DNA from: Bacillota bacterium
GTDB taxonomy: Bacteria; Armatimonadota; HRBIN16
Assembly: GCA_023511455.1 (NCBI GenBank)
Contig: JAIMBJ010000007.1
Coordinates: 1 to 64,000 of the forward strand
Reading direction: 5' to 3'
DNA: 64,000 nt
Numbering within the stretch: the first letter of the stretch is position 1; each line of letters begins with the position of its first letter. The notes under the pieces were generated by a model. That model did not search any database. It saw only the letters and a program-made list of their open reading frames with translations, and was not told the DNA's origin. The position numbers were made by a program, and so were the translations under genes. Positions 2,584 to 24,490 of this stretch are shown here, piece after piece.

Positions 2584-5500
2584 TCACTCGTCCCCAATCG
2601 CGCCGAAGTTGCTCACGAGAATACCGAAGTCAAACAGGCTGACCTCATCATCTCCGTCCAGGTCTGCGTTAGGGTTCCAGTTGCTATCGCCCGGCACAGA
2701 GCCGAACGCGCCTACCAGCTGACCGAAGTCGAACAGGGTGACCTCGTTATCACCATCCACGTCACCGTTCATCACGGTGTAGAAGTCCACAGTAACGTCG
2801 CCCGTGAGGGAAATCTGGGTTCTGGTACGCCTCAGCCAGTGCGACACCTTTGCCGCCATGTCGTACGTGCCGTGAAGTGTGGTCTGCAAGGTGTAGCGTG
2901 CCTCGGCATCGAGGCTGAGGAAGTGTGTCTCCAGCGGGCTGGTGCTTCCCGGCAGGCGAATGTCGATGGTAGCCGTCAAACCGGAAGGGTATCCGATAAA
3001 CTGTTGCAAGTCCATCGTGCCGGATACCTGTTTGGTGCTTGCAGGAATGGTGTAGACTGGGCTTTCGGCGACATGACCCGCGACATCAGTTGCTATGAAC
3101 ATCACCTTCGTGGGCGGGTTTCCCTGCAGGTTCAGGGGTACCTCACTGGCGGTCAGCGTTTCGAACGCACGCGAGCCCGGAACTCCTGTGGTAGGTGCAC
3201 GGTGGAAGGACCACGTGTTGCCTCCGTCGGTAGAATAACCAAAGGAGCACGCTTGGGTGTTCAGCCCCGAGAGTTCATCCCGCACGCGCACCGTACAGGA
3301 GGCACTTCGTCTATCTGCGCTGAAACCAGTGATGGTGAAGTCCTGCCAGTCGCCAGGCGGGTGCGGGTCCAGTCTGATGGGGAACCACTCGCTGTCGGAG
3401 TAGTTGCCTGCCCGGTCGTAGGCGCGGAACCGTACCGCTGCCTCGGACACCAGGGGCACGTAATCCGTATAGACCCACTCCAGACTCGTCGAACCGTCGG
3501 GGAAGTAAGTGGTAGCGGAAAGCGGACCGACGGTGCCTAACTCCGGCGTCCAGTACCAGTAGTAGGCGCCGCTGGAGAGCAGCCCGGAAACGGCGTCGCG
3601 CACCCTGATTTGGAATAGCCCGTAACCGGCGTCCCAGCCGGAGGGGCCGTTCTGCCAGTCACCGGGCGGGGTTCCATCCACGATGACCAGGTTCGTTGTG
3701 TAGGCGATACCGCCGTTGACGGACGCCACGTTGTAGGTGATGTCGAGCGCCCCTTCGTCAAAAGCGGTTACATTCCAGATTAGTTGCCTGTAAAATCCGG
3801 CAGGGATGTTTCCCTGATTGATGCCATCTCTATCGGTGAAGGAGAAGCTCTCTTCCATGCCGTCCGGCGCGTAACGGACGAAGGTCATGTGAGCCAACGT
3901 CAGAGCGGGATGAAGGCTGATGCTTCCGTACACGCCGGATGCCACGTAGGAGTGTGCGTATGCCGTGCCGATGACATCAAACGGGGTAAAAGGCTGTACA
4001 GCCACCGGTGTGGAAAGGTGCAGCGTGATGTTCGGGAAACGCGGTCCATACACCGCCCGCACAGCGACCGCCCACTTCTGCCAGGGGTCTCCGCTATCGC
4101 GGTGTGCATAGGTATGAACGTCGATGCGGTAGTTTCCCGCTGGAGCATCGTGTATCTCGATGACCTCTACGGTGTCACGCATGGAGGTTCCCCAGCTACG
4201 GCCTGGTCCATAGAGGTAGAGGTCCAGGTCGTTGACGAGGGCGGTCGTGGCTCCGGAGGGTGCCGGAGCATCCGGGTAGACCAGCACGACGCGCAGCAGC
4301 GAGGCGTCGTACGGCAGAACGAACTCCCTGGACTGCACGTCGCCGGTACGGTAGTTTGCACCCCAGTACACCTCCCACCAGCCGTCCACGCCGAAGTGAC
4401 AGAGCATCGCATCCACTTTCCCAAGCCCCAGAGCATCAGGGTAGCCCAGTGGGATGGCGTTTGCCAGAATGATGGCTTTCGTGACCCACGCGTACAGGTC
4501 GTAGTTGCCGAACTGCCCGATGACGCCGGTCGCCAGCCCTGCCACGTGGGGAGCCGCCATGGAGGTGCCTGTCCAGTTGTACAGATATCCCGCATCGTCG
4601 GTGTTGCTGCACGAATCGATCCAGGCACCGGGCGCCACCACGTCCGGCTTGCGTCGCCAGTCACCGGTCGGTCCTCGTGAAGAGAAGTAGGTTACCTGAT
4701 CCACGTAGCCGGGGAGGTCATCATAGATGGCGCCCACGGTCAGTGCCCCTTTGGCAACCCCTGGCGACGCGATGGTGCGTTCACGGGGCCCTTCGTTGCC
4801 GGCGGCGATAACGGGTAGAATGCTCTTGCGGAAAATCTCGTCCACCTTGCGGGACTCGGCGTCCGTACCCTTGAGGTCTGTGCCGGCGGCACCACCGCTG
4901 AAGTTGAACACCTGGCGAGAGTACACCGTGCGATTCCCCATTGAGTCCAGCGCCGCCATATCCAGCAACCCGCGGTACACAGAGTCGCCCTCTGCATAGC
5001 GGTCTCCGCGAAACACCTTGCTGACGAGCAGGTTATAGCCGGGCAGACCGGTATCACGGAAGCCCTGTGCCGTACCGCGGTATCGTGCCGCCGCATTGCC
5101 CGCGCCGAGCAAGGTACCCGTCACATGGGTGCCATGACCGTGCACGTCGTCCCACCAGTAGGTTTCGGAGGTACGGTTGTAACCAGCCGTATTGCTCCAG
5201 ATGTTACTGAAGTCCAGGTGGAAGCTCAAGCCGGTATCCATCACTCCGACCTTGGTGCCTACGAACGGGTCTCCTCCATCGCGCCCGTAATACCATATCA
5301 GGTCGGCGCTGATAGACCCTTGCGACTCGGTGTGCAGGGCGCGTGAGGGACGGATGGGCTCCACAAACAGCACCGCGTCCATATCGAGTATGCGGTGTAC
5401 CGTAGGGGCATCCGCCACCACTGTCATCACCCCCAGTGAAGGGTCGTACACACCCATCTGTGCCACCCGACTCGCAATAGCGTCGCAAGCCGTCTCGTCC

Positions 5501-6243
5501 GCGCTAAACAGGTTCACATACAGCCAGATGCGCTCTCCAGACCTGTCTCCGAGAAACAAAAGGAGATCCGGGTCAACCTTCTGCAAAGGGTATGGATGTC
5601 CCACCCAGCGCACCTGCGGATGAGAAGCTACCGCCTGTAAGGCGTCTGCGGGGATGCGTGCCTGATAGGCGTTGTAGGGATAGAAGCCCAGCAGTTGCAC
5701 GCCCTGCGCTTCCAGCCATGTCTGCAGGGTCTCATCCAGCCAATCGTTAAGCAGGATGAGCGCATAGACGGTGCTCTGTGCGTTGACGCCCTGTCGAGCG
5801 CGTTGTTGCACCAGCGCGGCCAGAGCAGGCTGCAGCTTCTCGCCCGGGGGCGGTTCATAGTCTCCGCAGAGAAAACCGAGCGCAGCCTTCTCCCCCTTGG
5901 TGCCGAAGGAAAGCACACGGCGTTCTCGTTGTACCACTCCCTCGCCCCCCAAAACTCGTCCTTCCCGCAGATACTGGGGACCGACGGGCCGGTCGAGATT
6001 CGCAAGTTCCGGACGGGTATGCGCCACCGAGGTGTGGTACTGCAGAGGGGGAGCCAGATCGCCGGGAAGGGATGGCATCCCCACCGCATCGCGCATCTCT
6101 AATAACCGCTGGAACGGGAACAGCTCGGAACCCATGTTGGGGCGGTTCGCGTGTTGGGCGGTGGACACATTAGTGCAAACAACAACCAGGAACAGGATAC
6201 CCATCCAGCTTACAGGAAACCACCCGATGCTTTGCCGTTGCAT
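2584..6243 (-). CDS. Secreted S8 (subtilisin-like) serine protease with C-terminal dockerin repeats
   Basis: A 1219-residue secreted protease. Residues 1-30 are a signal peptide (basic start, WMGILFLVVVCTNVSTAQ). A long N-terminal region, around residues 150-225, resembles an I9-type propeptide. The S8 domain follows with the complete triad: Asp336 in VMDTG, His370 in HGTHVTG and Ser561 in GTSMAAPH. Residues about 680-1150 are beta-rich, Ig-like modules including a pre-peptidase C-terminal type segment. The last 60 residues hold two dockerin type I calcium loops (NGDVDGDNEVTLFDFG and NADLDGDDEVSLFDFG). Start 6243 was preferred over an upstream frame because AAAGGAGG sits 9 bases ahead and the signal peptide then begins at the Met. 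Likely role: extracellular protein degradation. No cohesin is visible in the window, so the dockerin partner is unknown. Confidence 0.88.
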   Translation of the reverse strand: MQRQSIGWFPVSWMGILFLVVVCTNVSTAQHANRPNMGSELFPFQRLLEMRDAVGMPSLPGDLAPPLQYHTSVAHTRPELANLDRPVGPQYLREGRVLGGEGVVQRERRVLSFGTKGEKAALGFLCGDYEPPPGEKLQPALAALVQQRARQGVNAQSTVYALILLNDWLDETLQTWLEAQGVQLLGFYPYNAYQARIPADALQAVASHPQVRWVGHPYPLQKVDPDLLLFLGDRSGERIWLYVNLFSADETACDAIASRVAQMGVYDPSLGVMTVVADAPTVHRILDMDAVLFVEPIRPSRALHTESQGSISADLIWYYGRDGGDPFVGTKVGVMDTGLSFHLDFSNIWSNTAGYNRTSETYWWDDVHGHGTHVTGTLLGAGNAAARYRGTAQGFRDTGLPGYNLLVSKVFRGDRYAEGDSVYRGLLDMAALDSMGNRTVYSRQVFNFSGGAAGTDLKGTDAESRKVDEIFRKSILPVIAAGNEGPRERTIASPGVAKGALTVGAIYDDLPGYVDQVTYFSSRGPTGDWRRKPDVVAPGAWIDSCSNTDDAGYLYNWTGTSMAAPHVAGLATGVIGQFGNYDLYAWVTKAIILANAIPLGYPDALGLGKVDAMLCHFGVDGWWEVYWGANYRTGDVQSREFVLPYDASLLRVVLVYPDAPAPSGATTALVNDLDLYLYGPGRSWGTSMRDTVEVIEIHDAPAGNYRIDVHTYAHRDSGDPWQKWAVAVRAVYGPRFPNITLHLSTPVAVQPFTPFDVIGTAYAHSYVASGVYGSISLHPALTLAHMTFVRYAPDGMEESFSFTDRDGINQGNIPAGFYRQLIWNVTAFDEGALDITYNVASVNGGIAYTTNLVIVDGTPPGDWQNGPSGWDAGYGLFQIRVRDAVSGLLSSGAYYWYWTPELGTVGPLSATTYFPDGSTSLEWVYTDYVPLVSEAAVRFRAYDRAGNYSDSEWFPIRLDPHPPGDWQDFTITGFSADRRSASCTVRVRDELSGLNTQACSFGYSTDGGNTWSFHRAPTTGVPGSRAFETLTASEVPLNLQGNPPTKVMFIATDVAGHVAESPVYTIPASTKQVSGTMDLQQFIGYPSGLTATIDIRLPGSTSPLETHFLSLDAEARYTLQTTLHGTYDMAAKVSHWLRRTRTQISLTGDVTVDFYTVMNGDVDGDNEVTLFDFGQLVGAFGSVPGDSNWNPNADLDGDDEVSLFDFGILVSNFGAIGDE

Positions 6244-6413
6244 CGTGCCGACCTCCTTTGCTAATGTGGTATACCTAGTATGCATAAGCAATTACAAAAA
6301 AGTCAATGCATCGACGTGCGTTTTTGCTCGCTATACCGCATGACACATCCAAAGTTGCACTGCGCCTGAAGGTGCTGGTATCATTAACATAGCCGATGCG
6401 CTGAGGTGAGGTC

Positions 6414-7676
6414 ATGAGCGATTTTTGTGCCATTGAAGAAGCCGTAGAGCGGCTGAAGCAGGGCGAGATGATTATCGTGGTCGACGATGAGGACCGCGAG
6501 AATGAAGGAGATTTTGTCATTGCTGCCGAGAAGGTCACGCCTGAAGCCATCAACTTCATGGCGAAGTATGGTCGGGGACTGATATGTCTGGCTGCCACCG
6601 CACAACGACTGGACGAACTGCGCATCGGGCCGATCACCAGCAAATACAACGCCCGGCACGGCACCGCGATGATGGAGCCAATAGACGCTCGAATCGGGAC
6701 GACCACGGGCATCTCTGCGCACGATAGGGCGCAGACCATTCGACTGTTTGTAGACCCGCGTGCCCGTCCGGAGGATTTCGAGAAGCCGGGGCATGTGTTT
6801 CCCCTGCGGGCGGTGGAAGGAGGTGTGCTGAGGCGCGCCGGACATACGGAGGCGGCAGTAGACCTGGCGCGGCTGGCAGGACTGTACCCGGCAGGTGTTA
6901 TCTGCGAGATTATGAACGACGATGGCACGATGGCACGCCTGCCACAGCTGATGGAGCTGGCGAGGAAGTTCGGTATGTGCCTGGTGACCATCGAAGACCT
7001 GATCCGTTACCGCCGGCGATACGAGAAGCTGGTAAACAAAGTGGCGGTTGCCAAACTGCCCACTCGCTACGGGGAGTTCACCATCCACGCCTACGAGTGT
7101 ACCGTCGACCCCAACCCATACGTTGCCCTCGTGATGGCCGATGTTGCCGATGGTAAGCCCACGCTGGTGCGGGTACACTCGAGTTGCCTGACAGGCGACC
7201 TGCTGGAGTCGCTGCGTTGTGATTGCGGAAGCCAGCTGGAAATCGCTCTGCAGAGGATAGCGCAAGAAGGGCGTGGGGTCTTGCTGTATATCCAGCAAGA
7301 AGGACGTGGTATCGGTTTGTTGAATAAATTGCGAGCGTATGCCCTTCAGGACGAGGGGCTGGACACGGTGGATGCCAACATCGAGCTGGGCTTCCATGCC
7401 GACGAAAGAGACTATGGCATCGGGGCGCAGATTCTGGCGGACCTCGGTCTGCGAGAAATTCGGCTGATGACCAACAACCCCACCAAGCGCATCGGGCTGG
7501 AGGCGTACGGCCTGAAGATTGTGGAAATTGTGCCGATTGTGGGCGATGTTACTCCTTACAACAAACACTACCTGCGCACCAAGCGGGAGAAGATGGGACA
7601 CACCCTTCCCGAAGATGTAGAACAAATGACTGAGCAAAATCCGGAGGGTACGGTTTGCCATGCCCAAAATGTATGA
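6414..7676 (+). CDS. ribBA: Bifunctional 3,4-dihydroxy-2-butanone-4-phosphate synthase / GTP cyclohydrolase II
   Basis: A 420-residue enzyme that makes both precursors of riboflavin: the four-carbon unit from ribulose 5-phosphate (residues 1-200) and the pyrimidine from GTP (residues 205-400). The N-terminal half shows [12 protein letters not shown] and the [10 protein letters not shown]-like substrate segment. The C-terminal half shows [18 protein letters not shown] with the three zinc cysteines, followed by [10 protein letters not shown]. Length matches the family. A GGTGAGG Shine-Dalgarno sequence precedes the ATG. It overlaps ribH by 17 bases, so the two are translationally coupled. No ribD or ribE lies nearby. 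Confidence 0.95.
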
Positions 7677-12103: not shown

Positions 12104-14800
12104 ATGAGCCGTGTGAAATCCAAAAAGCAAGATTCGCCTGACGCGGTACAGGCTGGAGCCTGTACGACCCCATCCAGTGATAGCATCATTGCTCTCCACC
12201 TGCGTGAGGAATGGGTTCACGCGCTGGCTGAAATGCAGGACGCCCGGGAGATAGGGCAGTGGATAACGGAACAACGCGAGCAGCTGATGCATCACATTCA
12301 GCCCCACCAAGATGGACTGCATACCTGCCGTTCTTTTACAGCTCTTGCCGACGCGGTGGTGCGTCGTTTGTTTCAGCTTGCTGTCCAGCGCGCACACGTC
12401 GCACAGCCCCCGGAGATTGCCGTCGCCGCCACCGGCGGGTACGGGCGCATGGAACTGTCGCCGCACTCGGATATCGACATCACCTTCATCCCGGAGCGCG
12501 ACGGCGACGCCACTACCGATCGCATCATCCGCGAAATGTTTCGTCTGCTGATGCACGTGATGATGGAGTACGGGCATCTGAAGGTGGGCTACGCCTATCG
12601 GCTGATTGAGGACTGTGCCACGCTGGACCACACTACCCAGACGACCCTCGTGGATGCCCGACTGGTAACAGGGAGCCGACACATCTTCGCCCGCTTTCTG
12701 GAGGAGTTCTGGGCAAACTTCAATCCCACCGATTTTCTGTTCCGCAAAATCGCCGAGCGGCGCCAGGTACGCGCCCGTTATGGCACCACTCCTTATCTGG
12801 TGGAGCCGAACGTGAAAGAGGGGGCTGGCGGGCTACGTGATATTCACCTCGTGCGGTGGCTGGCAGCCGGATGGGCAGGGCTGCCCACGGCAGGGGAGTG
12901 GGAACAGCTGGTAGCCCGTGAGTGGCTGACGCCGGAGGACGCGGACCGCCTGATGGAGGCGCACGAGTTTCTGCTGCGCGTGCGCAACCACCTGCATGTT
13001 CTGGCAGGGGAACAGCGAGACGTTCTCACCCCCTCCAAACAAGAGCAAATCGCCTCTCGTCTCGGATACGAGCCCGGCGAGCACGCGCCCCCCGTGGAAC
13101 AGTTCATGCACGATTACTACCTTCACGCCGCAGACGCACACCGAATCTGCGAGGAGGTTATCCGTCGGGTCGAGCAGGGGAGGCACGTGCTGGGCATTGG
13201 ATTAGACTGCGAGCGCAAAGAGGTGATACCGGCACAAAACCTGTTGCAGCGCGAGGACCCTGTATGGATGGTGTGGGCGGTGCGATTAGCACTGGAGTAC
13301 GACCTGAATCTGAGCACACCTCTGCAACGGTTGATGAGGCAAACCGCTCAGCGGAAGCCGACCACGCATGACCCCAAACACCTTGCGGAGACGTTTCTTG
13401 CCATCCTGCGTGCCCCCAGCGGGGTGGCACGCGCCCTGCGCCAACTGGCAGACACGGGTGTGCTGGGATGGATACTGCCGGAGTTCGAGGCGACCCGCAC
13501 GCTAATCCCGTATGACCCCTCGCATAACTTCACCGTGGGCGAGCATACCCTGCGCGTGATAGAGAACGTCGATGCGCTGAACAGTATCACCGACCCCAAC
13601 TACGCGGATTACCGGCGCATTTTTCAGGAGACGCCGCACCGTGAGATACTGTACCTTGCTGCGCTGTTGCACGATGCGGGCAAGGCGAACCCACACATGG
13701 AGCACGCCGAAGCCGGAGCGCAGATGGCGCAGGAGGTGGGCAAAAGGCTGTACCTGAGCGAAGACGCGATTGCCGACCTGGTGTTTCTGGTGAGGCATCA
13801 CCTCTTAATGGCGGAAACCTCGCGGCTCCGCGACCTCAACCTGGAAGAAACCATACGCGATTTTGTCCACATCGTGGATACGGTAGAGCGACTGAACATG
13901 CTGTATATCCTGACGTATGCCGACACCCATGCGGTCGGCAGCGGGCAGTGGACGGAGGTAAAGGCCGCCTTCCTGCGAGAACTGCATCGCAAAGCGGAGC
14001 GGTTCCTGATGGCATCGGAAGCGGTGGATCACGCACCGCCTGACATCGGCAGATTCCGCCGCCGCCTGGCAAAGGAGCTGAGCCTGGAAAACCTGCCCGA
14101 AGAGCTGGTCACTCGCCACCTGAACCAGATGCCCGCGACCTACCTGCTGAACACGCCGCAGGAGCAGATTGGCTTGCACATCCGGATGGTGCAGGAGGCG
14201 ATACAGGGCACACCCCAGCTGGCATTCCAGACAGCTCCCGATGCATCGGTTACCGAGCTGACGGTCTGTGCTATCGACGACCCTGAGCCGGGCTTGCTGG
14301 CAAAGATTGCGGGCGTTCTTTACGCGGGACAGGTTGCCGTGCACGCGGCGAACGTGTTCACCCGCTCGGGGGAAATCAAGATTGCCCTGGATACGTTGTG
14401 GGTGGACTATCGCGGTCGCCCGATACCCCCTTCGAAGCGCGCGGAGATCGAGGAGCATATGGTCGCAGTGCTTACGGGCGAGTTGTCGGTAGCGGAACTG
14501 CTCCAACGTCGCCGTCGCCACGAACAGACGCCACCTGAGCTGGTCAGTCTGGTAGTGCATCACGACCTGTCCGAGCAGTTCACGGTGATAGAGGTGCGCA
14601 CCACCGAGCATATTGGGATGCTTTACTGGGTGTGCCGCGCGCTGTCGCAGCTGGGCTGGAACATCCACAGCGCGAAGCTCAGCACGTGGGCGGGCAAGGC
14701 GGTGGGCGTGTTCTACATCACCGACTCGGAGGGACGCAAAATCCACGCCGACGCCCAGCGACTGAAGGACACCCTCGCGGAAGGGGCAGAGGCGTTATAG
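12104..14800 (+). CDS. glnD: [Protein-PII] uridylyltransferase / uridylyl-removing enzyme
   Basis: An 898-residue nitrogen sensor that adds UMP to PII proteins when glutamine is low and removes it when glutamine is high. Nucleotidyltransferase motif GGYGRMELSPHSDIDI lies around residue 110. The HD hydrolase domain has LAALLHDAGKANPH near residue 520. Two ACT domains at the C-terminus (about 705-780 and 815-890) bind glutamine. The order and the length match GlnD. It starts 3 bases after the permease stop. No PII gene (glnB/glnK) is adjacent. Confidence 0.95.
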   Translation: MSRVKSKKQDSPDAVQAGACTTPSSDSIIALHLREEWVHALAEMQDAREIGQWITEQREQLMHHIQPHQDGLHTCRSFTALADAVVRRLFQLAVQRAHVAQPPEIAVAATGGYGRMELSPHSDIDITFIPERDGDATTDRIIREMFRLLMHVMMEYGHLKVGYAYRLIEDCATLDHTTQTTLVDARLVTGSRHIFARFLEEFWANFNPTDFLFRKIAERRQVRARYGTTPYLVEPNVKEGAGGLRDIHLVRWLAAGWAGLPTAGEWEQLVAREWLTPEDADRLMEAHEFLLRVRNHLHVLAGEQRDVLTPSKQEQIASRLGYEPGEHAPPVEQFMHDYYLHAADAHRICEEVIRRVEQGRHVLGIGLDCERKEVIPAQNLLQREDPVWMVWAVRLALEYDLNLSTPLQRLMRQTAQRKPTTHDPKHLAETFLAILRAPSGVARALRQLADTGVLGWILPEFEATRTLIPYDPSHNFTVGEHTLRVIENVDALNSITDPNYADYRRIFQETPHREILYLAALLHDAGKANPHMEHAEAGAQMAQEVGKRLYLSEDAIADLVFLVRHHLLMAETSRLRDLNLEETIRDFVHIVDTVERLNMLYILTYADTHAVGSGQWTEVKAAFLRELHRKAERFLMASEAVDHAPPDIGRFRRRLAKELSLENLPEELVTRHLNQMPATYLLNTPQEQIGLHIRMVQEAIQGTPQLAFQTAPDASVTELTVCAIDDPEPGLLAKIAGVLYAGQVAVHAANVFTRSGEIKIALDTLWVDYRGRPIPPSKRAEIEEHMVAVLTGELSVAELLQRRRRHEQTPPELVSLVVHHDLSEQFTVIEVRTTEHIGMLYWVCRALSQLGWNIHSAKLSTWAGKAVGVFYITDSEGRKIHADAQRLKDTLAEGAEAL

Positions 14801-14807
14801 CAACGGG

Positions 14808-14816
14808 TGATATAAT
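14808..14816 (+). promoter_or_regulatory. Extended -10 promoter ahead of the small toxin-antitoxin-like pair
   Basis: TGATATAAT (TGn plus TATAAT) sits right after the glnD stop. No good -35 box is seen, as is common with extended -10 promoters. A GGGAGGT ribosome binding site and a GTG at 14843 follow. Confidence 0.5.
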
Positions 14817-14842
14817 AGGAGTTGCAGGGAGGTGGCGCAAAG

Positions 14843-15073
14843 GTGGAAGAACGTGAAGAAGGCTGCACTCATCAGACGCCGTCGAGTAGGGATGTCTTTA
14901 CCACTTTGAAGCAGGCATCCATCCAACACGGCAGCAGCGAGGCTTTACTCTTCTGCTTTGGACGACTTGCCAGTTGCGCCGACGAGTTGAAACGACTGGA
15001 AGACCAGATTGAACAGATGGACACGGCCGCCGTCGAGAAAGCAGGCTCGTCTTTAACCTTTGCAGACAACTGA
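14843..15073 (+). CDS. Small hypothetical protein, possible antitoxin partner of the PIN toxin remnant
   Basis: A 76-residue protein not recognised by sequence. It starts at a GTG about 9 bases after GGGAGGT; a TTG at 14822 would run through that site. Its C-terminal half (ADELKRLEDQIEQMDTAAV) is predicted helical or coiled coil. It ends 5 bases before the ATG of a PIN-domain toxin reading frame and shares its promoter, which is the usual position for a VapB-type antitoxin. No AbrB, RHH or Phd fold can be recognised, so the antitoxin role is only positional. Confidence 0.45.
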   Translation: MEEREEGCTHQTPSSRDVFTTLKQASIQHGSSEALLFCFGRLASCADELKRLEDQIEQMDTAAVEKAGSSLTFADN

Positions 15074-15078
15074 CCACA

Positions 15079-15474
15079 ATGAGCCGCTACCTCATGGACA
15101 CCAACCATGTCAGTGGTCTGTGGAGAGGGGAGGAACGCCTCGCCGAAAGGATTAGGTCGTTCGATGGCGTAGTTTATCTGTGCACTCCAGTGGTTGGAGA
15201 GCTATAGCACATGGTGTATTCCAGTCATCGACAGGCAGAAAACATCGTCGAATTGGAGATTCTGCTGAGCCTTTTCCCTGTGTTGGCTTATGATGACCTT
15301 GCCGCACGTGAATATGGACGTATCCGCTCTTTGACGAAGCAACAGGGCTTCACACTACCGCCTGTTCACGCGATGATCGCTGCAACTGCACTGGTGCATG
15401 GTCTAACAGTGTTGACGTCGGATAGCGATTTCCTGCGGATTCCCGATTTGCGAGTGGAAAACTGGCTGATGTGA
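15079..15474 (+). pseudogene. VapC-like PIN-domain ribonuclease interrupted by an in-frame TAG
   Basis: One continuous reading frame of 131 codons encodes a type II toxin-antitoxin PIN nuclease, but codon 43 (15205-15207) is TAG. Before the stop are RYLMDTNHVSGLW (first catalytic Asp) and TPVVGEL (Glu). After it come HMVYSSHRQAENI, the AAREYGRIR segment, and LTVLTSDSDFLRI with the last acidic residues. In many PIN relatives the motif is GEL followed by an aromatic residue, so the lost residue was probably Trp (TGG to TAG) or Tyr. There is no frameshift. An in-frame ATG at 15211 could restart translation but would lack the N-terminal catalytic half. Most likely an inactivated toxin. Confidence 0.75.
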
Positions 15475-15544
15475 GCGCTGCTTAGGGCGATGATGGCAGA
15501 CAAGCGAACCGTGGGGAGGTGGACTCCCGTGACACCCGAAAGAT

Positions 15545-15580
15545 GAATCTGAGATGCTTCGCTAACACTCAGCATGACAA
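15545..15580. repeat. Small REP-like inverted repeat between toxin remnant and methylase
   Basis: The 155-base gap 15475-15629 contains ATGCT (15554-15558) facing AGCAT (15571-15575) inside a segment shaped like short dispersed palindromic elements found in several environmental bacteria. Only one copy is visible here, so it may be chance. Confidence 0.2.
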
Positions 15581-15629
15581 TGGAGTGCCAACATCACATG
15601 ACAGAAAGGTCATTGCTAGGAGTGCCGAC

Positions 15630-17063
15630 ATGAGTAAAGACGAGTCTCCGAACACGAGCGCGGACAAAGACGCACGTCCTATCGAGGTGGACTTCCCGTT
15701 GCAGAAAGTCTCCCAGGAGTCGGTGCGGGAGAAGAATATCCGACACGGGCACATCAGCACGCTGCATATCTGGTGGTCGCGCAAGCCGCTGGCAGCATCG
15801 CGGGCGTCCATCTTAGCCGCACTGCTGCCCGACAACCCCATCAAACGCCACGAGTACCTGAAACTCATCGAGCGACTCGCCCCGTGGGAAGACGCAAAGG
15901 CAAACAGCCGTGCGCTCCTACTACAGCAGGCGCGCGCCCTGATACGCGAGGCGTTCGGTGGGCGCGCCCCGCGCGTGTTAGACCCCTTCGCGGGCGGCGG
16001 CAGCATCCCGCTGGAGGCGATGCGACTGGGCTGCGAAACCTACGCGCTGGACTACAACCCCATCGCCGTGCTGCTCAATCGCTGCGTGCTGGAGTACCCG
16101 GCGCGCTTTGGCGCGCCCGACTCGGTGTCCAGCGTGCCCTTGCCACCATCCGACGCGCCGTCGCAGGCGACCTTGCTCGTGGATGTCCCTGCCCCATCGC
16201 CCCTGTTGCTGGCGGTGCAGGCGTGGGGCGACTGGGTGCTACACGAGGCGCGGAAGCGACTGGAACGCTTCTACCCGCCCGACCCTGACGGCTCGATTCC
16301 TGTCGGCTACTATTGGATGCGCACCGTGCCCTGCCAGAACCCCAGCTGTGGCGCGGAAATCCCCCTCACCGCCAACTTGTGGCTGGCAAAGAAAGACCAG
16401 AAAGAGGTGGCGCTGAAGATTGTGCCTGAGCGTGCGCAGAGGCGGGTGGCGTTCCAGATTGTGGGTCAGGAGGGCGAACCGATAGACTTCGACCCTGAGC
16501 GGGGCACGGTGGCGCGGGCGCATGTGGAGTGTCCCCTGTGCGGGGGCGTGATAGACGACAAGACGACCCGTCGTCTGTTCCAGGAGGGCAAGGCGGGTCA
16601 GCGGATGGTTGCCGTGGTGCTGCACCACCCTAATCATCGGGGCAAGCGGTATCGGCTGGCGACCGAAGCGGATGGGGACGCCTACCGCGCTGCTCAAGCG
16701 GAGCTGCAGCGTGTGCGCGACCGTCTGCGCGAAGAGTGGGGCATGGAGCCGGTGCCCGATGAGCCGCTGCCGCCGCTGGAAGCGCTCGGTTTTCGAGTCC
16801 AGCGCTACGGTCTGACCCGTTGGGGCGACCTGTTCAATGCGCGGCAGCAGTTGGCGTTGGTGACCTTTGTTGACCTGGTGCGTCGGGCGCACGCCGAGAT
16901 GCTGGCGCAGGGCGCCGACCCCGAATTCGCTAAAGCCGTGGCGACCTACTTGGCGTTAACAGTCTCTCGAATGTCCGATTTTGAGACATCGCTAGCAGCC
17001 TGGCATCCACAGTGGGAGTTTTCTAAGAACACATTCTCACGACAGGCAATCCCGATGACTTAG
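15630..17063 (+). pseudogene. DUF1156 adenine-specific DNA methylase, N-terminal part ending at a premature TAG
   Basis: 477 codons of a COG1743-type DNA methylase. The start at 15630 follows AGGAG by 7 bases and gives the family N-terminus [20 protein letters not shown] and [15 protein letters not shown] (DUF1156). The SAM-binding segment [18 protein letters not shown] lies around residue 118. Zinc-ribbon cysteines (CQNPSCG and CPLCGG) lie at 230-315. The frame stops at TAG 17061-17063 after RQAIPMT; in the family this is followed by WDY/WDF, so TGG became TAG. The next codons in the same frame read DYSELNP and continue the protein. The stop lies in a patch of clearly lower G+C (16981-17160). 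As read, the enzyme is truncated before its DPPY catalytic motif. Confidence 0.85.
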
Positions 17064-18479
17064 GATTACTCAGAGCTTAATCCGTTGTCTCCCATCCTAA
17101 CAGGCACTTGGCGGAGTATGTTTGGGCAAGTTATGGAAACCTTATCGAACCTTGTTAGCACTCCAATCTCAGATACGACTCTTGGGAGTATTCAACACGG
17201 TTCCGCGACCGACCTGCCGTGGGAAGACAACTTCTTCGACGCCGTCATCACCGACCCGCCCTACTACGATAATGTGCCCTACGCAGACCTCTCGGACTTT
17301 TTCTATGTGTGGCTCAAGCGCAGCGTGGGGCACCTGCACCCCGACCTGTTCGTCACCCCGCTCACGCCCAAATCCCAAGAGATGGTCGCCGACGCCAGCA
17401 AGGTGGGCGGCGATATGCAAAAGGCACGCGAGCGATTCGAGGCGATGCTTCTGCAGGCGTTTCGTGAAATCCGCCGCGTGCTGAAGCCGAACGGCATCGC
17501 CGTGATTGTGTTCGCGCACAAGACCACCGCAGCGTGGGAGACGGTGCTGGGCGCACTCACGGAGGCAGGACTGCGCATCACGATGGCATGGCCCATCCAC
17601 ACCGAGATGCAGGCGCGGTTGCGCGCGCAGGAGTCGGCTGCACTGGCGAGCAGCATCTATATGGTCTGTCGCAAGCGTCAAGGCGCGACAACGGGCTACT
17701 GGAGCGAGGTGCGCCGTGAGACGCGCGAGCGCGTGGAGCGCCGCCTGCAGCAGTTCTGGGACGCAGGGGTGCGTGGGGCGGATATGTTCATCAGCGCGAT
17801 TGGCGCGGCGATGGAGGTCTTCACCCGCTATGCTCGCGTGGAGAAAGCGTCGGGCGACCCTGTGCCGTTGGGCGAGTTTTTGCAGGAGGTGCGCCAGGTG
17901 GTCGCCGAGTTTGCGCTGCGGCGCGTGCTACACGAGCAAGCCGTTGCCAGCGAGCTGGACGCGCTCACCCGCTTCTACCTGCTCTATCGCTGGTCTTACG
18001 GGCGCGCGGAGGCGCCGTTTGATGAGGCGCGCAAGTTGGCGACCAGCGTCGGGCTGGAGCTGACGCAGGTGTGGGGCGCGGGCGAGGTCATCGAGCAGGA
18101 CAAGGAGCGCGTGCGCGTGCGGGCGCACTACGAGCGGGCGTGGGGCGTGCGTGTGGGCAGGAATGCGGGGCTTCGACGTCCAAAGACAACGATTGAGCAG
18201 TTCACGATGGAGGCGATGCAGCAGGGCGAGGGCGGGAAGGACGATGCGGTCGCCGCATGGGATGTGCTGCGGGAGCGCGGGCGCAGCGCGCTGATTGAGG
18301 CGATTCAGCTGGCAGCGGCGCTGTGGGAGGCGAACCAGCTGAGCCTGTTGCGCGAATGGCTCGACGAAGGCTACGGTAACCGCCCCGCCTTCTGGCTGAC
18401 GGCGCAAGCCATCTCGGAGCTCCTGCCCGACGGCGAGCGCGAACGCCGCGTCCTGCAAGGACTACTTGCACATCGGTAA
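17064..18479 (+). pseudogene. DUF1156 adenine-specific DNA methylase, C-terminal part after the premature TAG
   Basis: The same frame continues without a shift for 471 codons. It holds the catalytic motif ITDPPYYDNVPYADLSDFFY about 60 codons after the stop, then the family C-terminal region ending a few bases before the DUF499 ATPase. Re-initiation could occur at ATG 17118 (weak GGCGGAG ahead) or 17133, giving a protein with the catalytic motif but without the [10 protein letters not shown]-binding motif. Whether N- and C-terminal pieces could act as two chains is unknown. Most economical reading: a single methylase gene inactivated by one G-to-A change. Confidence 0.8.
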
Positions 18480-18499
18480 AATAACAGATGGAGGCACCC

Positions 18500-21139
18500 A
18501 TGCGGGCATGGTACGAGGTGATTAAGCCGCGCGCGGACATTCTGAGTGGCGAGTTGGACGAGGCGATTTTCGCGGCGAACTTGGCGGATGTGCTGCACGG
18601 GCGCGCGCCGCTGGAGTATGGCGACCCCGCGCGGTTCTTTCAGCAGACCTACCCGACGCAGGGGCTGGTGAACCTGCTGGCGGCGGTAGCGAAACGGCTG
18701 GCGCAGGGTACAGGCGACTCGGTGATTCAGCTCCAGACGCCGTTCGGCGGGGGCAAGACGCACGCGCTGATCAGCCTTTACCACCTGTTTCGGCATGGGA
18801 GGCAGTTCCCCGACGCCGTGCTAGTGCGCCAGACGGTGGAGCGGGCGGGGCTGGACGCGCTGCCAGAGGTGCGCATCGCCTGCTTCGTCGGCGAGGACGC
18901 CGACCCCATTCGCGGCAAGACGCCGTGGGGCGCGCTCGCCGAGCAGCTCGGCGTCTACCCGCTGGTGGAGGAACACGACCGCCGCCGCCGCGCGCCCGGA
19001 CGCGACCTCGTGCTGCAAATGCTCGGCGAACAACCGACGCTGATCCTGCTCGATGAGCTGGCGGTCTACCTGGTGGCAGCAAAAGACTTTCAGGATCAGG
19101 TGCTGGCGTTCTGTCAGCAGTTGACGGAGGCGGTGAGCGTCTCGCCGCGCGCCGCGCTGGTGGCGACGCTGCCCAGCAGCGCGCCCTACGGCGAGGAGGG
19201 TGAACGCGCCCTGCGTCAGCTGGAGCAAATCTTCGGGCGCGTGCAGGCACTCTACACCCCCGTTGAAGGCGACGAGTTCTTCCGCGTGCTGCGCCAACGC
19301 CTGATGCAGGAAGTGATTGACCCCACCGAGCTGAACCGCGTCGTGGACGCCTTTTTCGAACTCTACAAGCGCGCCGATGTGCCCGAAGAGGCGCGCCAAG
19401 ACGCCTACCGCGAGCGGATGCGCCTGGCGTACCCGTTCCACCCACTGGTCATCGACACGCTCAATCGGCGGTGGAGCACCTTTTCGAGCTTTCAGCGCAC
19501 GCGCGGCGTGCTGAAGTTTCTCGCCTCCGCGCTGCGCGACCTGTACGAGCGTCAAGTGAACACGCCGCTGATTCTGCCCGCGCACCTGAATCTGGAATAT
19601 GCCTCCATTCGGCAGGAGCTGCTGCGGCATATCGGCAACCCGTATGCAGGTGTCATCAGCCAGGACATTGCGGGCGCGGGCGCAAACGCCGTGCAGATTG
19701 ACCAGCAGCTGGGCGCGGAGTACGCGCCGATGCGCATTGCGTCGGGGCTGGCGACCGCCATCTTTTTCGGCTCATTCAGCGCGGGCGAGCAGGTGGGCGT
19801 CACGGAGCCTGAGCTGCGCTTGGCAGTCCTGCGCCCGAACCTGCCCCCCGCCGTGATTGGCGACGCGCTGCACAAACTCACCCAGAAGCTCTGGTACCTC
19901 CACTCCGAGAGCGGGCTGTACGCCTTTCGGCTCACGCCCAACCTGAACAAGGTGCTGCTGGAGAAAGAGGAGCAGGTGCGCGCCCACGACTTAGCACAGC
20001 GCGTGCGCGACGAGGTTCAGGCGCGCATAGGACGCGAGAGCCTGACGCCGCTGGCGTTCCCGAATAATTCCGGCGACATCCCCGACACAAAGGAGCTGAA
20101 GCTCATCGTACTGGCGCCTGAACATCTCTTCGGCAGGTCCGAGACGGAGGCGTTCGTGGGGGAGTTGCTCACGCGCGCGGGGGACAAGCCGCGCGTCTAC
20201 CGCGCCACTTGCTTTGTGCTTGCGCCCGACGCCAACGAACTGGAGCAACTCCAGCGTCGCGTCAAACAGCTGCTCGCGCTGGAGGCGATTCAACGCGACC
20301 AGAAGCTCCTGCAATCGCTCAGCGACGAAGACAAGCACACCGTCAGCGGTCGGATTAGCGAGATACGGAACGCCCTGCCGCAGTTGGCGCTGAGCGCGTA
20401 TCGGCATCTTGCTCTCTGGCGCGAGAACGCCGTGCAGTGGTTCAATCTCGGCATCCCGACGGCGGGCAGGCAGGAGACGCTCACCTCGCGCGTGGTGAAC
20501 TTTCTGCGCAAGGAAGACATGCTGGTCAGCCGCGTCTCGCCGCAGCTGGTGCGCGATAAGGCGGTCGGCGCGGATACCGATAAGCCCCTTGCAGAGGTGG
20601 TGGACGCTTTCTACAAGTACCCCTCGCTGCCGATAGTGGAGTCGCCGCGCGTGGTGCTGGACGCGATTCAGCGCGGGGTGCAGGAGGGGCTGTTCGCCGT
20701 GCAAATCGGCGAGCGCGTCTACTTCAAGGAGCCTGTGTCGCTGAGCGAGAGTGAGTATGGAGCGACGGTGCGCACCGACTACACGCCGCCTGCTGCGCAG
20801 CCGTCCGACCAGACCGCGCCCGCGACAGACGAGGCGACGCCTACGCCTTCGCGCGTTATCGAGAACGGCGTTGAGCTGCTTCCCCCGCCTGCGACGCCCG
20901 CCTCCGCGCCGACGCCCGCCCCCAGCTACCGACGCTACGCCCTGCGCGCCCGATTCTCCACCGACAAGTTCTCGGAGGTCTACTCCAGCGTCATCAAGCC
21001 GATTGTCGAAACGGGACGCAGCTTCACCTTCACGCTGGAGTTCGAGGTGGACGGCGAGCTGCCCAAGCAAGTGGTCGATATGCGCGTGTCGGAGTCGGCG
21101 CGGCAGCTCGGTCAAGTGGAACGCGAGGAGAAGGCATAA
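18500..21139 (+). CDS. DUF499-family ATPase of the defence module
   Basis: An 879-residue P-loop ATPase. Walker A is TPFGGGKTHAL (residues about 79-89) and Walker B is LILLDELAVYL (about 180-190). The C-terminal quarter contains a low-complexity Pro/Ala/Thr linker followed by a small alpha/beta domain. This is the COG1483 family that accompanies DUF1156 methylases and SNF2 helicases in defence islands. The ATG at 18500 is preceded by GGAGG at a 5-base gap; an ATG at 18488 overlaps that site. It begins 20 bases after the methylase frame ends and 3 bases separate it from the helicase, so all three form one operon. Codons are markedly rich in GCG/CGC. The molecular role in defence is not established here. 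Confidence 0.8.
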   Translation: MRAWYEVIKPRADILSGELDEAIFAANLADVLHGRAPLEYGDPARFFQQTYPTQGLVNLLAAVAKRLAQGTGDSVIQLQTPFGGGKTHALISLYHLFRHGRQFPDAVLVRQTVERAGLDALPEVRIACFVGEDADPIRGKTPWGALAEQLGVYPLVEEHDRRRRAPGRDLVLQMLGEQPTLILLDELAVYLVAAKDFQDQVLAFCQQLTEAVSVSPRAALVATLPSSAPYGEEGERALRQLEQIFGRVQALYTPVEGDEFFRVLRQRLMQEVIDPTELNRVVDAFFELYKRADVPEEARQDAYRERMRLAYPFHPLVIDTLNRRWSTFSSFQRTRGVLKFLASALRDLYERQVNTPLILPAHLNLEYASIRQELLRHIGNPYAGVISQDIAGAGANAVQIDQQLGAEYAPMRIASGLATAIFFGSFSAGEQVGVTEPELRLAVLRPNLPPAVIGDALHKLTQKLWYLHSESGLYAFRLTPNLNKVLLEKEEQVRAHDLAQRVRDEVQARIGRESLTPLAFPNNSGDIPDTKELKLIVLAPEHLFGRSETEAFVGELLTRAGDKPRVYRATCFVLAPDANELEQLQRRVKQLLALEAIQRDQKLLQSLSDEDKHTVSGRISEIRNALPQLALSAYRHLALWRENAVQWFNLGIPTAGRQETLTSRVVNFLRKEDMLVSRVSPQLVRDKAVGADTDKPLAEVVDAFYKYPSLPIVESPRVVLDAIQRGVQEGLFAVQIGERVYFKEPVSLSESEYGATVRTDYTPPAAQPSDQTAPATDEATPTPSRVIENGVELLPPPATPASAPTPAPSYRRYALRARFSTDKFSEVYSSVIKPIVETGRSFTFTLEFEVDGELPKQVVDMRVSESARQLGQVEREEKA

Positions 21140-21142
21140 CCG

Positions 21143-24100
21143 ATGGACGCGCCGCTACGCAAGGGGCAATTGCTGGAGTCCAGCCGCTACCCTGAACCCG
21201 TCACGGTCATCGAGGTGGAGCCTTACGGGGGGGATGGGATATGGCTATTGCGTGCAGTGGGCGTCAACTCGCGTCAATACTACGAAGAAATCCTCACAAC
21301 AGATGAGCTGCGTGCCTTGTGCCCCGCTGCGCCGCTGGCGAGCGACTCTCGTGGCGATGCGGAGCTGTTCTTTCTGGGCATCGAGGCGCACCGCCTGCGC
21401 GCGGCGTACCTGTTCGACCCGCTGCTCGCGGTCAATGTCTCGCAAATAGACCCGTTGCCTCACCAGATCGAGGCGGTGTACCACTACATTTTGCGCCAGC
21501 CCGATGTGCGCTTCCTGCTGGCGGACGACCCTGGCGCGGGCAAGACCATCATGGCGGGGCTGCTGCTCAAGGAGCTGAAGTATCGCGGAGTCGTGCAGCG
21601 CACGCTGCTGGTTGTGCCCGGACACCTCAAGTACCAGTGGCAGCGCGAGATGAAGGAGAAGTTCGGCGAGCCGTTCGCCATCATCGATCGGGGCGTGCTG
21701 GACACCCACTGGGGACGCAATGTGTGGGAGGAGCAAGCGCAGGTGATTACCTCACTCGATTTCGCCAAGCGGGACGATGTGCTGGAGACGCTGCAGGAGG
21801 TGCATTGGGACTTGGTGATTGTGGACGAGGCGCACAAGATGGCGGCGTACCAGTACGGCTCCAAGACGAACAAGACGGCGCGCTATCGGCTGGGCGAGCG
21901 GCTCTCGCTGCAGACACACGGACTACTGTTCCTGACGGCGACGCCCCATCGCGGCGACCCCGAAAACTTTCGGCTGTTTCTGGACCTGTTGCGCCCGGGC
22001 TTTTTCGGCACCGTGGAGATGCTCAACCAGTCGATCCAGCAGCAGGACAACCCGCTGTTTTTGCGCCGTCTGAAGGAAGACCTCAAGGACTTTCACGGAC
22101 GCCCGCTGTTCCCCCCGCGCCGTGTCTACACGCGCACCTTTCGGCTGAGCGACGCCGAGAAACGGCTCTACAATCGCCTCACCGAGTATGTGGAGCAGGA
22201 ATACGGGCGCGCGATGCAGGGCGAGAAGCGCAATGTCGCCTTCGCGCTGCTTTTGCTGCAGCGACGCTTCGCCTCCAGCATCTACGCCGCGCGCAAATCG
22301 CTGGAGCGACGCCGCGACCGCCTGCAAAAGTTTCTGGAGCTGGGCGCGCGATTCACTGAGCAGGGGCAAGGGGTGCTGTTCCTCGATGAAGACGAACTGG
22401 AGGAGTTGGAAGAGCAAGAGCGCGTGCAGCTGGAAGACGAACTGCTGGAAAAGCTCACCAACGCTGCCACGCAGGCAGAGCTGAGGCGTGAAATCGAAAC
22501 CCTCAACGATCTGGTGCAGCTTGCGCGTCAAGCAGAAAAGCAAGAGATTGAAACGAAACTGAACGAACTCCGCGAGGTGCTGGACGAACTCAACCTGCGC
22601 GGCACGCGCGAGAAACTGCTCGTGTTCACCGAATCGCGCGACACGCTCGACTATCTGGTGCGGCAGCTGCGCAAGTGGGGCTATGCGGTCACCGAGCTGC
22701 ACGGCGGGATGAACTTGGACGCACGCATCCGCGCCGAACACGAGTTCCGCCACGAGACTCAAGTCATGGTCTCCACCGAGGCGGGCGGCGAGGGGATTAA
22801 CCTGCAGTTCTGTGCGCTGATGGTCAACTACGACATCCCGTGGAACCCGAACCGCTTGGAACAGCGCATGGGGCGCATCCATCGCTACGGGCAAAGCCGC
22901 GAGGTGCATATCTACAACCTTGTCGCCGAGGACACCCGCGAGGGCGAGGTGCTGGCGACGCTGTTTGAGAAGCTGCAGAACATCCAACAGCAGATGGGCA
23001 CCGACCGCGTGTTCGATGTCATCGGTGACCTGCTGGAAAAGAGCCTGCGCGAGTTGATTGTGGAGGCGATTACGAACCCCACGCGCTGGCACGAAATTGT
23101 GAGCCAGATTGCCACGACCCCCGACGAGGCACTCATAGCGCGCGTGCGCGAAGCCACGCAAGAGGCGTTAGCCACGCGCCACATCGACATGCAGGCGATT
23201 CTGGGCGAGGAGCGTCGTGCCCGCGAGCAGCGTCTCGTGCCCGAGTATGTGGAGCAGTTCTTCGAGCGCGCATGTCGGCGTCTGGATATCCGCTTGCGCC
23301 GCCCTCCACCTCACCTGTGGAGCCTCGATACACCCTACGAGCTGCGTCGCCAGTCCCAAGCGTTCAAGCGCGCCTACGGCGAGGTGCAGCCCAGCTATCA
23401 GCGCTTGACCTTCCACAAATCGGTCGCCCGCGAGCAAGGCGCGGAGTTCATCGCGCCAGGACACCCCCTGCTGGAGGCGGTCGTCGAGCAACTGTTGGAG
23501 CAGAGCAAGACCGCTTTGGCGCAGGGCGCGACCTTCGTCGACCCCGACGGCAAGCGCGACCGCTGGCTCTACTTCTACGCTTTGGAACTGCGCGATGGGA
23601 ACAACCAAGTCGCCGCACAGCGGCTAACGGCGATTTTCTGTCCGCACGGCGGCGCGCCTCAAAGCGTCAACCCGTCCATTCTGTGGGATTTGCAGCCCGC
23701 CGTGTCGCCGCCGTATCAGGCGCAACCACCCGATGAAGCCGCCATTCACACCTACCTGCTGCAGCACCTCCTGGAGCCGTTGGAGCAAGAGCTGCGGGCG
23801 CATCGCGAGCAACTGGCGGAGATCAAGCGCAGGTATGGCGTCGCTTCACTCAACCGCCGTATCGGGGAGTTGACCCAGCGTCTGCTGGAGTACGAACAAC
23901 GCTTGGTGCCTGCGCCTGAAGTGGCGAATGTGCGCCGCCGCAAAGAGGAAGCAGAGGCGCGCAAACAAGCGTTAGAGGCACAGATCGAGCGCGAGCGCAC
24001 GATTCGGCGCGTGCCGCCGCGCTTGCTCGGCGTGGCGCGAGTGGTTCCCGCGCCGTCGGACAGCCTCCCGATGCACGCCGACGCCGCCATCGAAGCCATC

Positions 24101-24490
24101 GGGATGCAGGTCGCGATGGAGTACGAGCGTCAGCAGGGGCGCGTTCCCGTCGATGTCTCCGCCGAGAATCGCGGCTACGATATCCGCTCCGAAGCGCCCG
24201 ACGGCAGCGTGCGCTACATCGAGGTCAAGGCGCGCGCCCACATCGGCGACCTCGTGCTAACGCCCAACGAGTGGACGATGGCGCAACGGCTGGGCGACGA
24301 GTACTGGCTGTACATCGTCACGGCCGCGGCGAACCAGCCACAACTGCAGTGCATCCAGAACCCTGCAGCAGCACTCAAACCGCTGCCAATTGAGGGAGTC
24401 GTGCGCTATCAAGTGCCGATGGAACACTGGCAGCGAGTCGCACGTCCAGCGGAGCCGTCAGCTCAACTTTCGACCGAAGGCGCATTATAG
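21143..24490 (+). CDS. SNF2-type helicase with C-terminal DUF3883 domain
   Basis: A 1115-residue SF2 helicase. N-terminal lobe: ADDPGAGKTIMAGLLLKEL (Walker A near residue 135), VIVDEAHKMAAY (DEAH near 229) and TATPHRGDP (about 268). C-terminal lobe: LVFTESRDTLDYLV, EAGGEGINLQF and RLEQRMGRIHRYGQ (about 490-590). Long charged helices follow, then a DUF3883 domain at about 1000-1085 with GYDIRSE and YIEVKAR, which resemble the D and ExK of PD-(D/E)XK nucleases. With the ATPase and methylase it forms the helicase-methylase-ATPase type of anti-phage cluster. It is intact, in contrast to the methylase. Confidence 0.85.
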   Translation: MDAPLRKGQLLESSRYPEPVTVIEVEPYGGDGIWLLRAVGVNSRQYYEEILTTDELRALCPAAPLASDSRGDAELFFLGIEAHRLRAAYLFDPLLAVNVSQIDPLPHQIEAVYHYILRQPDVRFLLADDPGAGKTIMAGLLLKELKYRGVVQRTLLVVPGHLKYQWQREMKEKFGEPFAIIDRGVLDTHWGRNVWEEQAQVITSLDFAKRDDVLETLQEVHWDLVIVDEAHKMAAYQYGSKTNKTARYRLGERLSLQTHGLLFLTATPHRGDPENFRLFLDLLRPGFFGTVEMLNQSIQQQDNPLFLRRLKEDLKDFHGRPLFPPRRVYTRTFRLSDAEKRLYNRLTEYVEQEYGRAMQGEKRNVAFALLLLQRRFASSIYAARKSLERRRDRLQKFLELGARFTEQGQGVLFLDEDELEELEEQERVQLEDELLEKLTNAATQAELRREIETLNDLVQLARQAEKQEIETKLNELREVLDELNLRGTREKLLVFTESRDTLDYLVRQLRKWGYAVTELHGGMNLDARIRAEHEFRHETQVMVSTEAGGEGINLQFCALMVNYDIPWNPNRLEQRMGRIHRYGQSREVHIYNLVAEDTREGEVLATLFEKLQNIQQQMGTDRVFDVIGDLLEKSLRELIVEAITNPTRWHEIVSQIATTPDEALIARVREATQEALATRHIDMQAILGEERRAREQRLVPEYVEQFFERACRRLDIRLRRPPPHLWSLDTPYELRRQSQAFKRAYGEVQPSYQRLTFHKSVAREQGAEFIAPGHPLLEAVVEQLLEQSKTALAQGATFVDPDGKRDRWLYFYALELRDGNNQVAAQRLTAIFCPHGGAPQSVNPSILWDLQPAVSPPYQAQPPDEAAIHTYLLQHLLEPLEQELRAHREQLAEIKRRYGVASLNRRIGELTQRLLEYEQRLVPAPEVANVRRRKEEAEARKQALEAQIERERTIRRVPPRLLGVARVVPAPSDSLPMHADAAIEAIGMQVAMEYERQQGRVPVDVSAENRGYDIRSEAPDGSVRYIEVKARAHIGDLVLTPNEWTMAQRLGDEYWLYIVTAAANQPQLQCIQNPAAALKPLPIEGVVRYQVPMEHWQRVARPAEPSAQLSTEGAL

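What the first reader, a model, noticed from the sequence alone, without database searches (positions are those of the whole stretch)
15205..17063. Two in-frame amber codons within 2 kb, each splitting an otherwise intact defence-type gene
TAG at 15205-15207 cuts a PIN toxin and TAG at 17061-17063 cuts a DUF1156 methylase. In both cases the frame continues without a shift and the family pattern calls for Trp at the stop (certain for the methylase, where RQAIPMT is followed by WDY; probable for the toxin). One G-to-A change explains each. Either two independent inactivations hit neighbouring costly genes, or there is TAG readthrough as Trp, or assembly error.
Basis: partly seen in the sequence, partly recalled or inferred. 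Interest (0 to 1): 0.75.

Follow-up and report, generated by a model that had tools for sequence, protein, structure and literature searches.

The report
Two broken defence genes, ordinary decay
Two neighbouring bacterial defence genes each carry a real, ordinary stop codon where relatives have the amino acid tryptophan; the evidence points to recent loss of function in genes that decay often, not to a changed genetic code.

Summary
TAG 15205-15207 interrupts a PIN/VapC-type toxin gene (15079-15474). TAG 17061-17063 interrupts HmaB, the DUF1156 adenine methylase (15630-18479) of an Hma / type-1 BREX-related operon whose HmaC and HmaA remain open. Relatives have Trp at both sites: sister species G007 has an intact PIN gene with Trp at the same locus, and the HmaB Trp is invariant in all 34 aligned homologues.

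Readthrough is not supported. TAG ends 29 of 79 homology-supported genes on this contig, 26 of them where their orthologues stop. Release factor 1 is intact, no CUA tRNA was found, and there is one tRNA-Trp (CCA).

Best reading: nonsense mutations in accessory genes that decay easily. The PIN gene has also lost a conserved Asp, and the same gene is broken differently in two congeners. Premature stops of all three kinds occur in 5 of 44 HmaB loci. HmaABC show ordinary purifying selection, so the HmaB stop is recent. A consensus error or mixed population at the HmaB codon cannot be excluded without reads.

Side findings: a MNT-HEPN pair inside HmaB in two phyla, inteins at HmaB catalytic motifs, and a low-GC hypervariable segment containing the HmaB stop.

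The parts
14843..15073 (+). 76-aa ORF, likely antitoxin partner of the PIN gene (GTG start, conserved in sister G007; no Pfam match)
15079..15474 (+). PIN/VapC-type toxin gene, interrupted (pseudogene)
   Evidence: Pfam PF01850 on the part after the stop; intact 96% identical gene in sister G007
15205..15207 (+). in-frame TAG, codon 43 of the PIN gene; Trp in G007 and G003
15367..15369 (+). second lesion: His at codon 97 of the PIN gene where relatives have a conserved Asp
15630..18479 (+). HmaB, DUF1156 N6-adenine methylase gene, interrupted
   Evidence: PADLOC HmaB on both halves, consecutive profile positions; PF06634
17061..17063 (+). in-frame TAG, codon 478 of HmaB; Trp invariant in 34 of 34 aligned homologues
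16968..17195 (+). low-GC hypervariable segment of HmaB (residues 447-522), probably an exchanged part of the target recognition region
18488..21139 (+). HmaC, DUF499 AAA+ ATPase, open
21143..24490 (+). HmaA, SNF2 helicase with C-terminal NOV_C domain, open

Best explanation
Both genes are recently inactivated accessory defence genes. In each, a Trp codon has become a TAG that the cell reads as a stop. The PIN/VapC-type toxin of a toxin-antitoxin pair next to a glnD-like gene would end after 42 residues, and its coding sequence has also lost a conserved catalytic-site Asp. HmaB would end after 477 residues, separating the SAM-binding part (DPFAGGGS) and target-recognition region from the catalytic DPPY half, so the Hma operon should be unable to methylate. 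By analogy with BREX, where the methylase is needed for host methylation and its gene is often disrupted, the operon is then probably silent. Shown: the stops, the Trp in relatives, TAG as a working stop, the second PIN lesion, and the recurrent decay of both genes in relatives. Inferred: that the two mutations were independent, that no functional methylase is made, and that the operon is off.
For: TAG is a normal stop: 29 of 79 homology-supported genes, 26 ending where the orthologue ends, 11 of those with TAA or TGA in the orthologue; RF1 intact; no CUA tRNA, one tRNA-Trp CCA; no PylS above cut-off. PIN: intact in G007, Asp97 lost here, internal deletion in G003, deletion plus stop in G002. 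HmaB: Trp478 invariant; other HmaB loci have TGA at 397, TAG near 68, TAA at 551, a multiply broken copy, and a deletion. dN/dS of HmaB parts, HmaC and HmaA against G007 is 0.16-0.26, so the lesion is recent. PMC9122589 reports phase variation and frequent disruption of BREX PglX.
Against: HmaB has a single lesion and HmaC/HmaA are open and under purifying selection, so error, polymorphism or a still functional system cannot be ruled out from one consensus sequence. Two broken neighbours among some 80 genes is a little more clustered than chance, although both lie in accessory DNA. An intact helicase-nuclease without its methylase could be harmful to the host if the methylase is the self-protection component (PMC12839542).
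Confidence: 0.82

Rival explanations
1. TAG is read as Trp in this organism, wholly or in part, by a suppressor tRNA or by leaky termination, so both proteins are made at full length.
For: Both stops fall exactly at Trp sites with no frame shift. The tRNA set found is incomplete: Tyr, Ile-GAU, Ala-UGC and Thr-GGU were not seen.
Against: TAG is the commonest stop among 79 supported genes and coincides with orthologous ends; RF1 intact; no CUA tRNA and no second Trp-like tRNA; the PIN gene has a further lesion that readthrough would not rescue; broken HmaB genes elsewhere carry TGA, TAA and TAG at other sites.
Confidence: 0.02
2. One or both stops are consensus errors or strain polymorphism in a metagenome-type assembly; the living population largely has Trp codons.
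For: Single-base differences in otherwise open frames; the genome is in 73 contigs and reads are not available here.
Against: The PIN gene has an additional change of a conserved Asp, and relatives show real decay of the same gene. Only one such interruption shows among 79 supported genes of the contig, so the assembly is not generally error-prone.
Confidence: 0.11
3. The interrupted HmaB is still functional or switchable: the two halves are made as separate polypeptides that complement each other, or the break is a reversible off state.
For: HmaB loci in two phyla are in two pieces around a MNT-HEPN pair near residue 515. BREX methylases show phase variation. In-frame ATGs follow at 17118 and 17133.
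Against: The natural split keeps the invariant WDxxE motif in the first piece; here the motif would fall in neither piece. No tandem repeat lies at the TAG and the inverted repeats found are imperfect and chance-like. The Acetothermia example has a shifted HmaC frame and may itself be decaying.
Confidence: 0.05

Closest known systems
Hma system (PADLOC; PMC8565338), reclassified as type-1 DUF499-centred BREX-related (BR) system (PMC12839542)
   Same: Helicase, DUF1156 methylase and DUF499 ATPase in one operon, matched by the PADLOC models HmaA, HmaB and HmaC
   Different: The methylase gene has an in-frame stop; gene order here is B, C, A
Disrupted or phase-variable BREX methylase genes (PglX; PMC9122589)
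   Same: The methylase component of a BREX-like system is interrupted while neighbours stay open
   Different: Here a plain nonsense codon, with no repeat that would make it switchable
VapBC-type toxin-antitoxin pair with PIN-domain toxin
   Same: Small upstream ORF followed at once by a PIN-domain ORF
   Different: The PIN gene has a nonsense codon and has lost one conserved Asp; the antitoxin candidate matches no Pfam family

Membership tests
Hma / type-1 BR system | Three core genes, HmaA helicase, HmaB methylase, HmaC DUF499 ATPase, in one operon | tested here: met
   PADLOC matches E 7e-215 (A), 6e-71 and 7e-54 (two halves of B), 1.5e-143 (C)
Hma / type-1 BR system | DUF1156 at the N-terminus and DPPY catalytic motif of the methylase | tested here: met
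   PF06634; DPPY invariant in A1
Hma / type-1 BR system | Intact methylase reading frame | tested here: not met
   TAG at codon 478
Hma / type-1 BR system | C-terminal nuclease-like domain on the helicase | tested here: met
   PF13020 NOV_C at residues 983-1071, with E-x-K (IEVKA) present; nuclease activity not tested
Hma / type-1 BR system | Anti-phage activity | not testable with these tools
   none
VapC-type PIN toxin | PIN domain | tested here: met
   PF01850 on the part after the stop, E 2e-10
VapC-type PIN toxin | Conserved acidic catalytic residues | tested here: not met
   His97 where the sister and most homologues have Asp
TAG recoding / suppression | TAG rare or absent as a genuine stop | tested here: not met
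   29 of 79 supported genes end in TAG, 26 at the orthologous end
TAG recoding / suppression | A tRNA with anticodon CUA | tested here: not met
   none among the typed tRNAs; tRNA set incomplete in gaps
TAG recoding / suppression | Loss or change of release factor 1 | tested here: not met
   prfA 529 bits against a cut-off of 423, open frame
Phase-variable methylase | Tandem repeat or invertible repeats at the break | tested here: not met
   no tandem repeat at the TAG; only imperfect chance-like inverted repeats

The most novel reading that the evidence does not exclude
The stop-interrupted HmaB is a functional or reversible state (two complementing fragments, or a nonsense-based off switch of a costly methylase), in line with HmaB genes elsewhere that are naturally in two pieces around a MNT-HEPN pair.
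Probability: 0.05. Interest if true: 0.5.

Novelty: new member of a known kind. Interest (0 to 1): 0.15.

Why it matters
It removes a candidate genetic-code exception and replaces it with a documented case of decay in a defence block. It adds a rough rate: premature stops in 5 of 44 HmaB loci examined, in line with the reported frequent disruption of BREX methylase genes. The side findings (a MNT-HEPN pair inside HmaB in two phyla, inteins at its catalytic motifs, a low-GC hypervariable segment) may interest specialists more than the two stops.

Tried and rejected
Readthrough or recoding: rejected. Pyrrolysine: the only PylS-like hits are far below the model cut-off. Phase-variation repeats: none at the stop. 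The idea that the low-GC segment around the HmaB stop is peculiar to this genome was rejected: many close HmaB homologues show the same drop in GC and identity there. The idea that the natural split near residue 515 explains the TAG: the break is about 40 residues earlier and would leave the invariant motif out of both pieces. The structure search with the HmaB model (mean pLDDT 87) gave only weak Rossmann methyltransferase matches, and the profile search of solved structures two weak ones; neither adds anything. A first survey of stops over all six-frame ORFs was too noisy and was replaced. One tblastn run used HmaB one base out of frame; its HmaB rows were disregarded and the other rows kept.

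Full report
What is there. The window lies in a 135.5-kb contig of a 3.85-Mb genome (99% complete, 73 contigs). Its relatives are Armatimonadota: the G007 contig C139 and the record titled Armatimonadetes bacterium RSWS16 have the same length and give the same match. Reading rightwards from a glnD-like gene (12104-14800; the name is from memory and was not checked against a family library) come a 76-aa ORF, a PIN-domain gene, HmaB, HmaC, HmaA and a beta-helix gene. The PIN gene starts at ATG 15079 and has TAG as codon 43. HmaB starts at ATG 15630 and has TAG as codon 478. The longer ORF from GTG 15519 is not the conserved start, since a 26-nt indel against the sister falls in that stretch. PADLOC matches the two halves of HmaB at consecutive profile positions (10-518 and 520-879), so nothing is missing except the sense of one codon.

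The residue at the stop. For the PIN gene, sister G007 has TGG and an otherwise 96% identical protein, and G003 also has Trp. For HmaB, Trp is present in all 34 homologues of alignment A1. W478, D479 and E482 are three of only ten invariant columns, along with the catalytic DPPY. In the AlphaFold model of the read-through sequence (mean pLDDT 87), W478 lies directly before a strand (479-483), between the long insert after the second core strand and the catalytic half of the fold.

Is TAG a stop here? Yes. On the contig, 79 genes have homology support in two congeners; 29 end in TAG, 26 in TAA, 24 in TGA. Of the 29, 26 end within 12 residues of the orthologue's end, and in 11 of these the orthologue uses TAA or TGA. 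The PIN gene is the only clear case in that set where conserved protein sequence continues past the stop. RF1 is intact. Of 43 Rfam tRNA hits, 42 were typed and none has CUA; there is one tRNA-Trp, CCA, and no second Trp-like tRNA. No pyrrolysine synthetase reaches its cut-off. The tRNA set is not complete (Tyr, Ile-GAU, Ala-UGC and Thr-GGU were not seen), so a suppressor in a gap cannot be formally excluded, but the stop usage alone makes general readthrough untenable.

Decay of the PIN gene. Against G007 the TA stretch is 96-98% identical in DNA, higher than the glnD-like gene beside it (84-94%), with synonymous divergence 0.04-0.06 in the two TA genes against 0.47 in the neighbour. This suggests a recent common source of the TA pair. 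Within that short time the window copy gained the TAG and lost the Asp of the PPFDAMIAA motif (PPVHAMIAA here). G003 keeps only an internally deleted PIN gene and no recognisable antitoxin; G002 keeps pieces of both joined by a deletion with a stop between. Three of the nine other genomes of the genus therefore hold recognisable copies or remnants at this place, and only G007's is intact. The Hma operon sits between this TA pair and the beta-helix gene in the window genome and G007; in G003 the PIN remnant is followed by the beta-helix gene without Hma.

Decay of HmaB. Of 44 HmaB loci with at least 400 aligned residues, five contain in-frame stops: this TAG at 478, G212 TGA at 397, G062 TAG near 68, G090 TAA at 551, and a multiply broken second copy in G005. 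G107 has lost HmaB after residue 363 and most of HmaC while HmaA stays open. The mix of TAG, TGA and TAA at different sites is what random loss gives, not recoding. HmaB, HmaC and HmaA all show ordinary purifying selection against G007 (dN/dS 0.16-0.26), so the HmaB lesion is recent. PMC9122589 states that phase variation of the BREX methylase PglX has been observed and that PglX genes are often disrupted. PMC12839542 places Hma next to BREX as a type-1 BR system, with the methylase as the self-protection component and the helicase-nuclease as effector. On that reading a lost methylase with an intact effector looks dangerous, but in the Acinetobacter BREX study a PglX deletion was constructed, and only deletions of PglZ, BrxB and BrxR are listed as slowing growth. 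Whether Hma behaves alike is unknown.

A caution on the sister. G007 holds at least two HmaB copies. Its contig C96 (glnD-like gene, TA, HmaB start) joins C139 by an exact 127-nt overlap, but C139 runs on into unrelated genes, while C93 starts with a slightly different HmaB end followed by HmaC and HmaA. Its Trp478 may therefore come from either copy. The invariance over 34 homologues does not depend on this.

The stretch around the HmaB stop. Residues 447-522 are 46% GC against 62-66% in the flanks, and only about 35% identical to G007 against 76% in the flanks. The same drop in GC3 and identity is seen in many close homologues, such as L020, L157, L011 and L009. This fits an often exchanged part of the target recognition region; PMC12839542 describes a target-recognition insert after core strand 2. 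The stop may have arrived with such an exchange or after it; this was not resolved.

Verdict. Interest is low. The item most worth following is the recurrent interruption of HmaB by other elements, listed separately.

Noticed in passing
L172 8289-8995 (G032) and L014 11461-12124 (Acetothermia bacterium 64_32): A MNT-HEPN toxin-antitoxin-like pair sits inside the HmaB gene, between the SAM-binding part and the DPPY part, at the same place (near residue 515) in two phyla. In L006 and L011 such a pair lies between HmaB and HmaC instead.
   Followed up: partly
L015 3-2450 and L022 1-2784: HmaB genes carry intein-like insertions that begin with Cys and end with HN before Cys: one after FFY in L015, and two in L022, one of them inside the DPPYYDN catalytic motif.
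   Followed up: no
window 16968-17195: Low-GC hypervariable segment of HmaB; the same fall in GC3 and identity recurs in many close HmaB homologues, suggesting frequent exchange of part of the target recognition region.
   Followed up: partly
window 14800-15600: The TA stretch is 96-98% identical to sister G007 while the glnD-like gene beside it is 84-94% identical, suggesting recent transfer or exchange of the TA pair.
   Followed up: partly
L173 (G107) 4646-6465: A deletion joins HmaB residue 363 to HmaC residue 615 while HmaA stays open.
   Followed up: no
L007 4880 (Blastocatellia) and L020 2632: HmaA genes with in-frame stops: TGA at a Trp site in L007 and TAG in L020.
   Followed up: no
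L005 3-2603 (G007 C139): G007 has an HmaB copy that is not followed by HmaC or HmaA but by unrelated genes, possibly an orphan methylase.
   Followed up: partly
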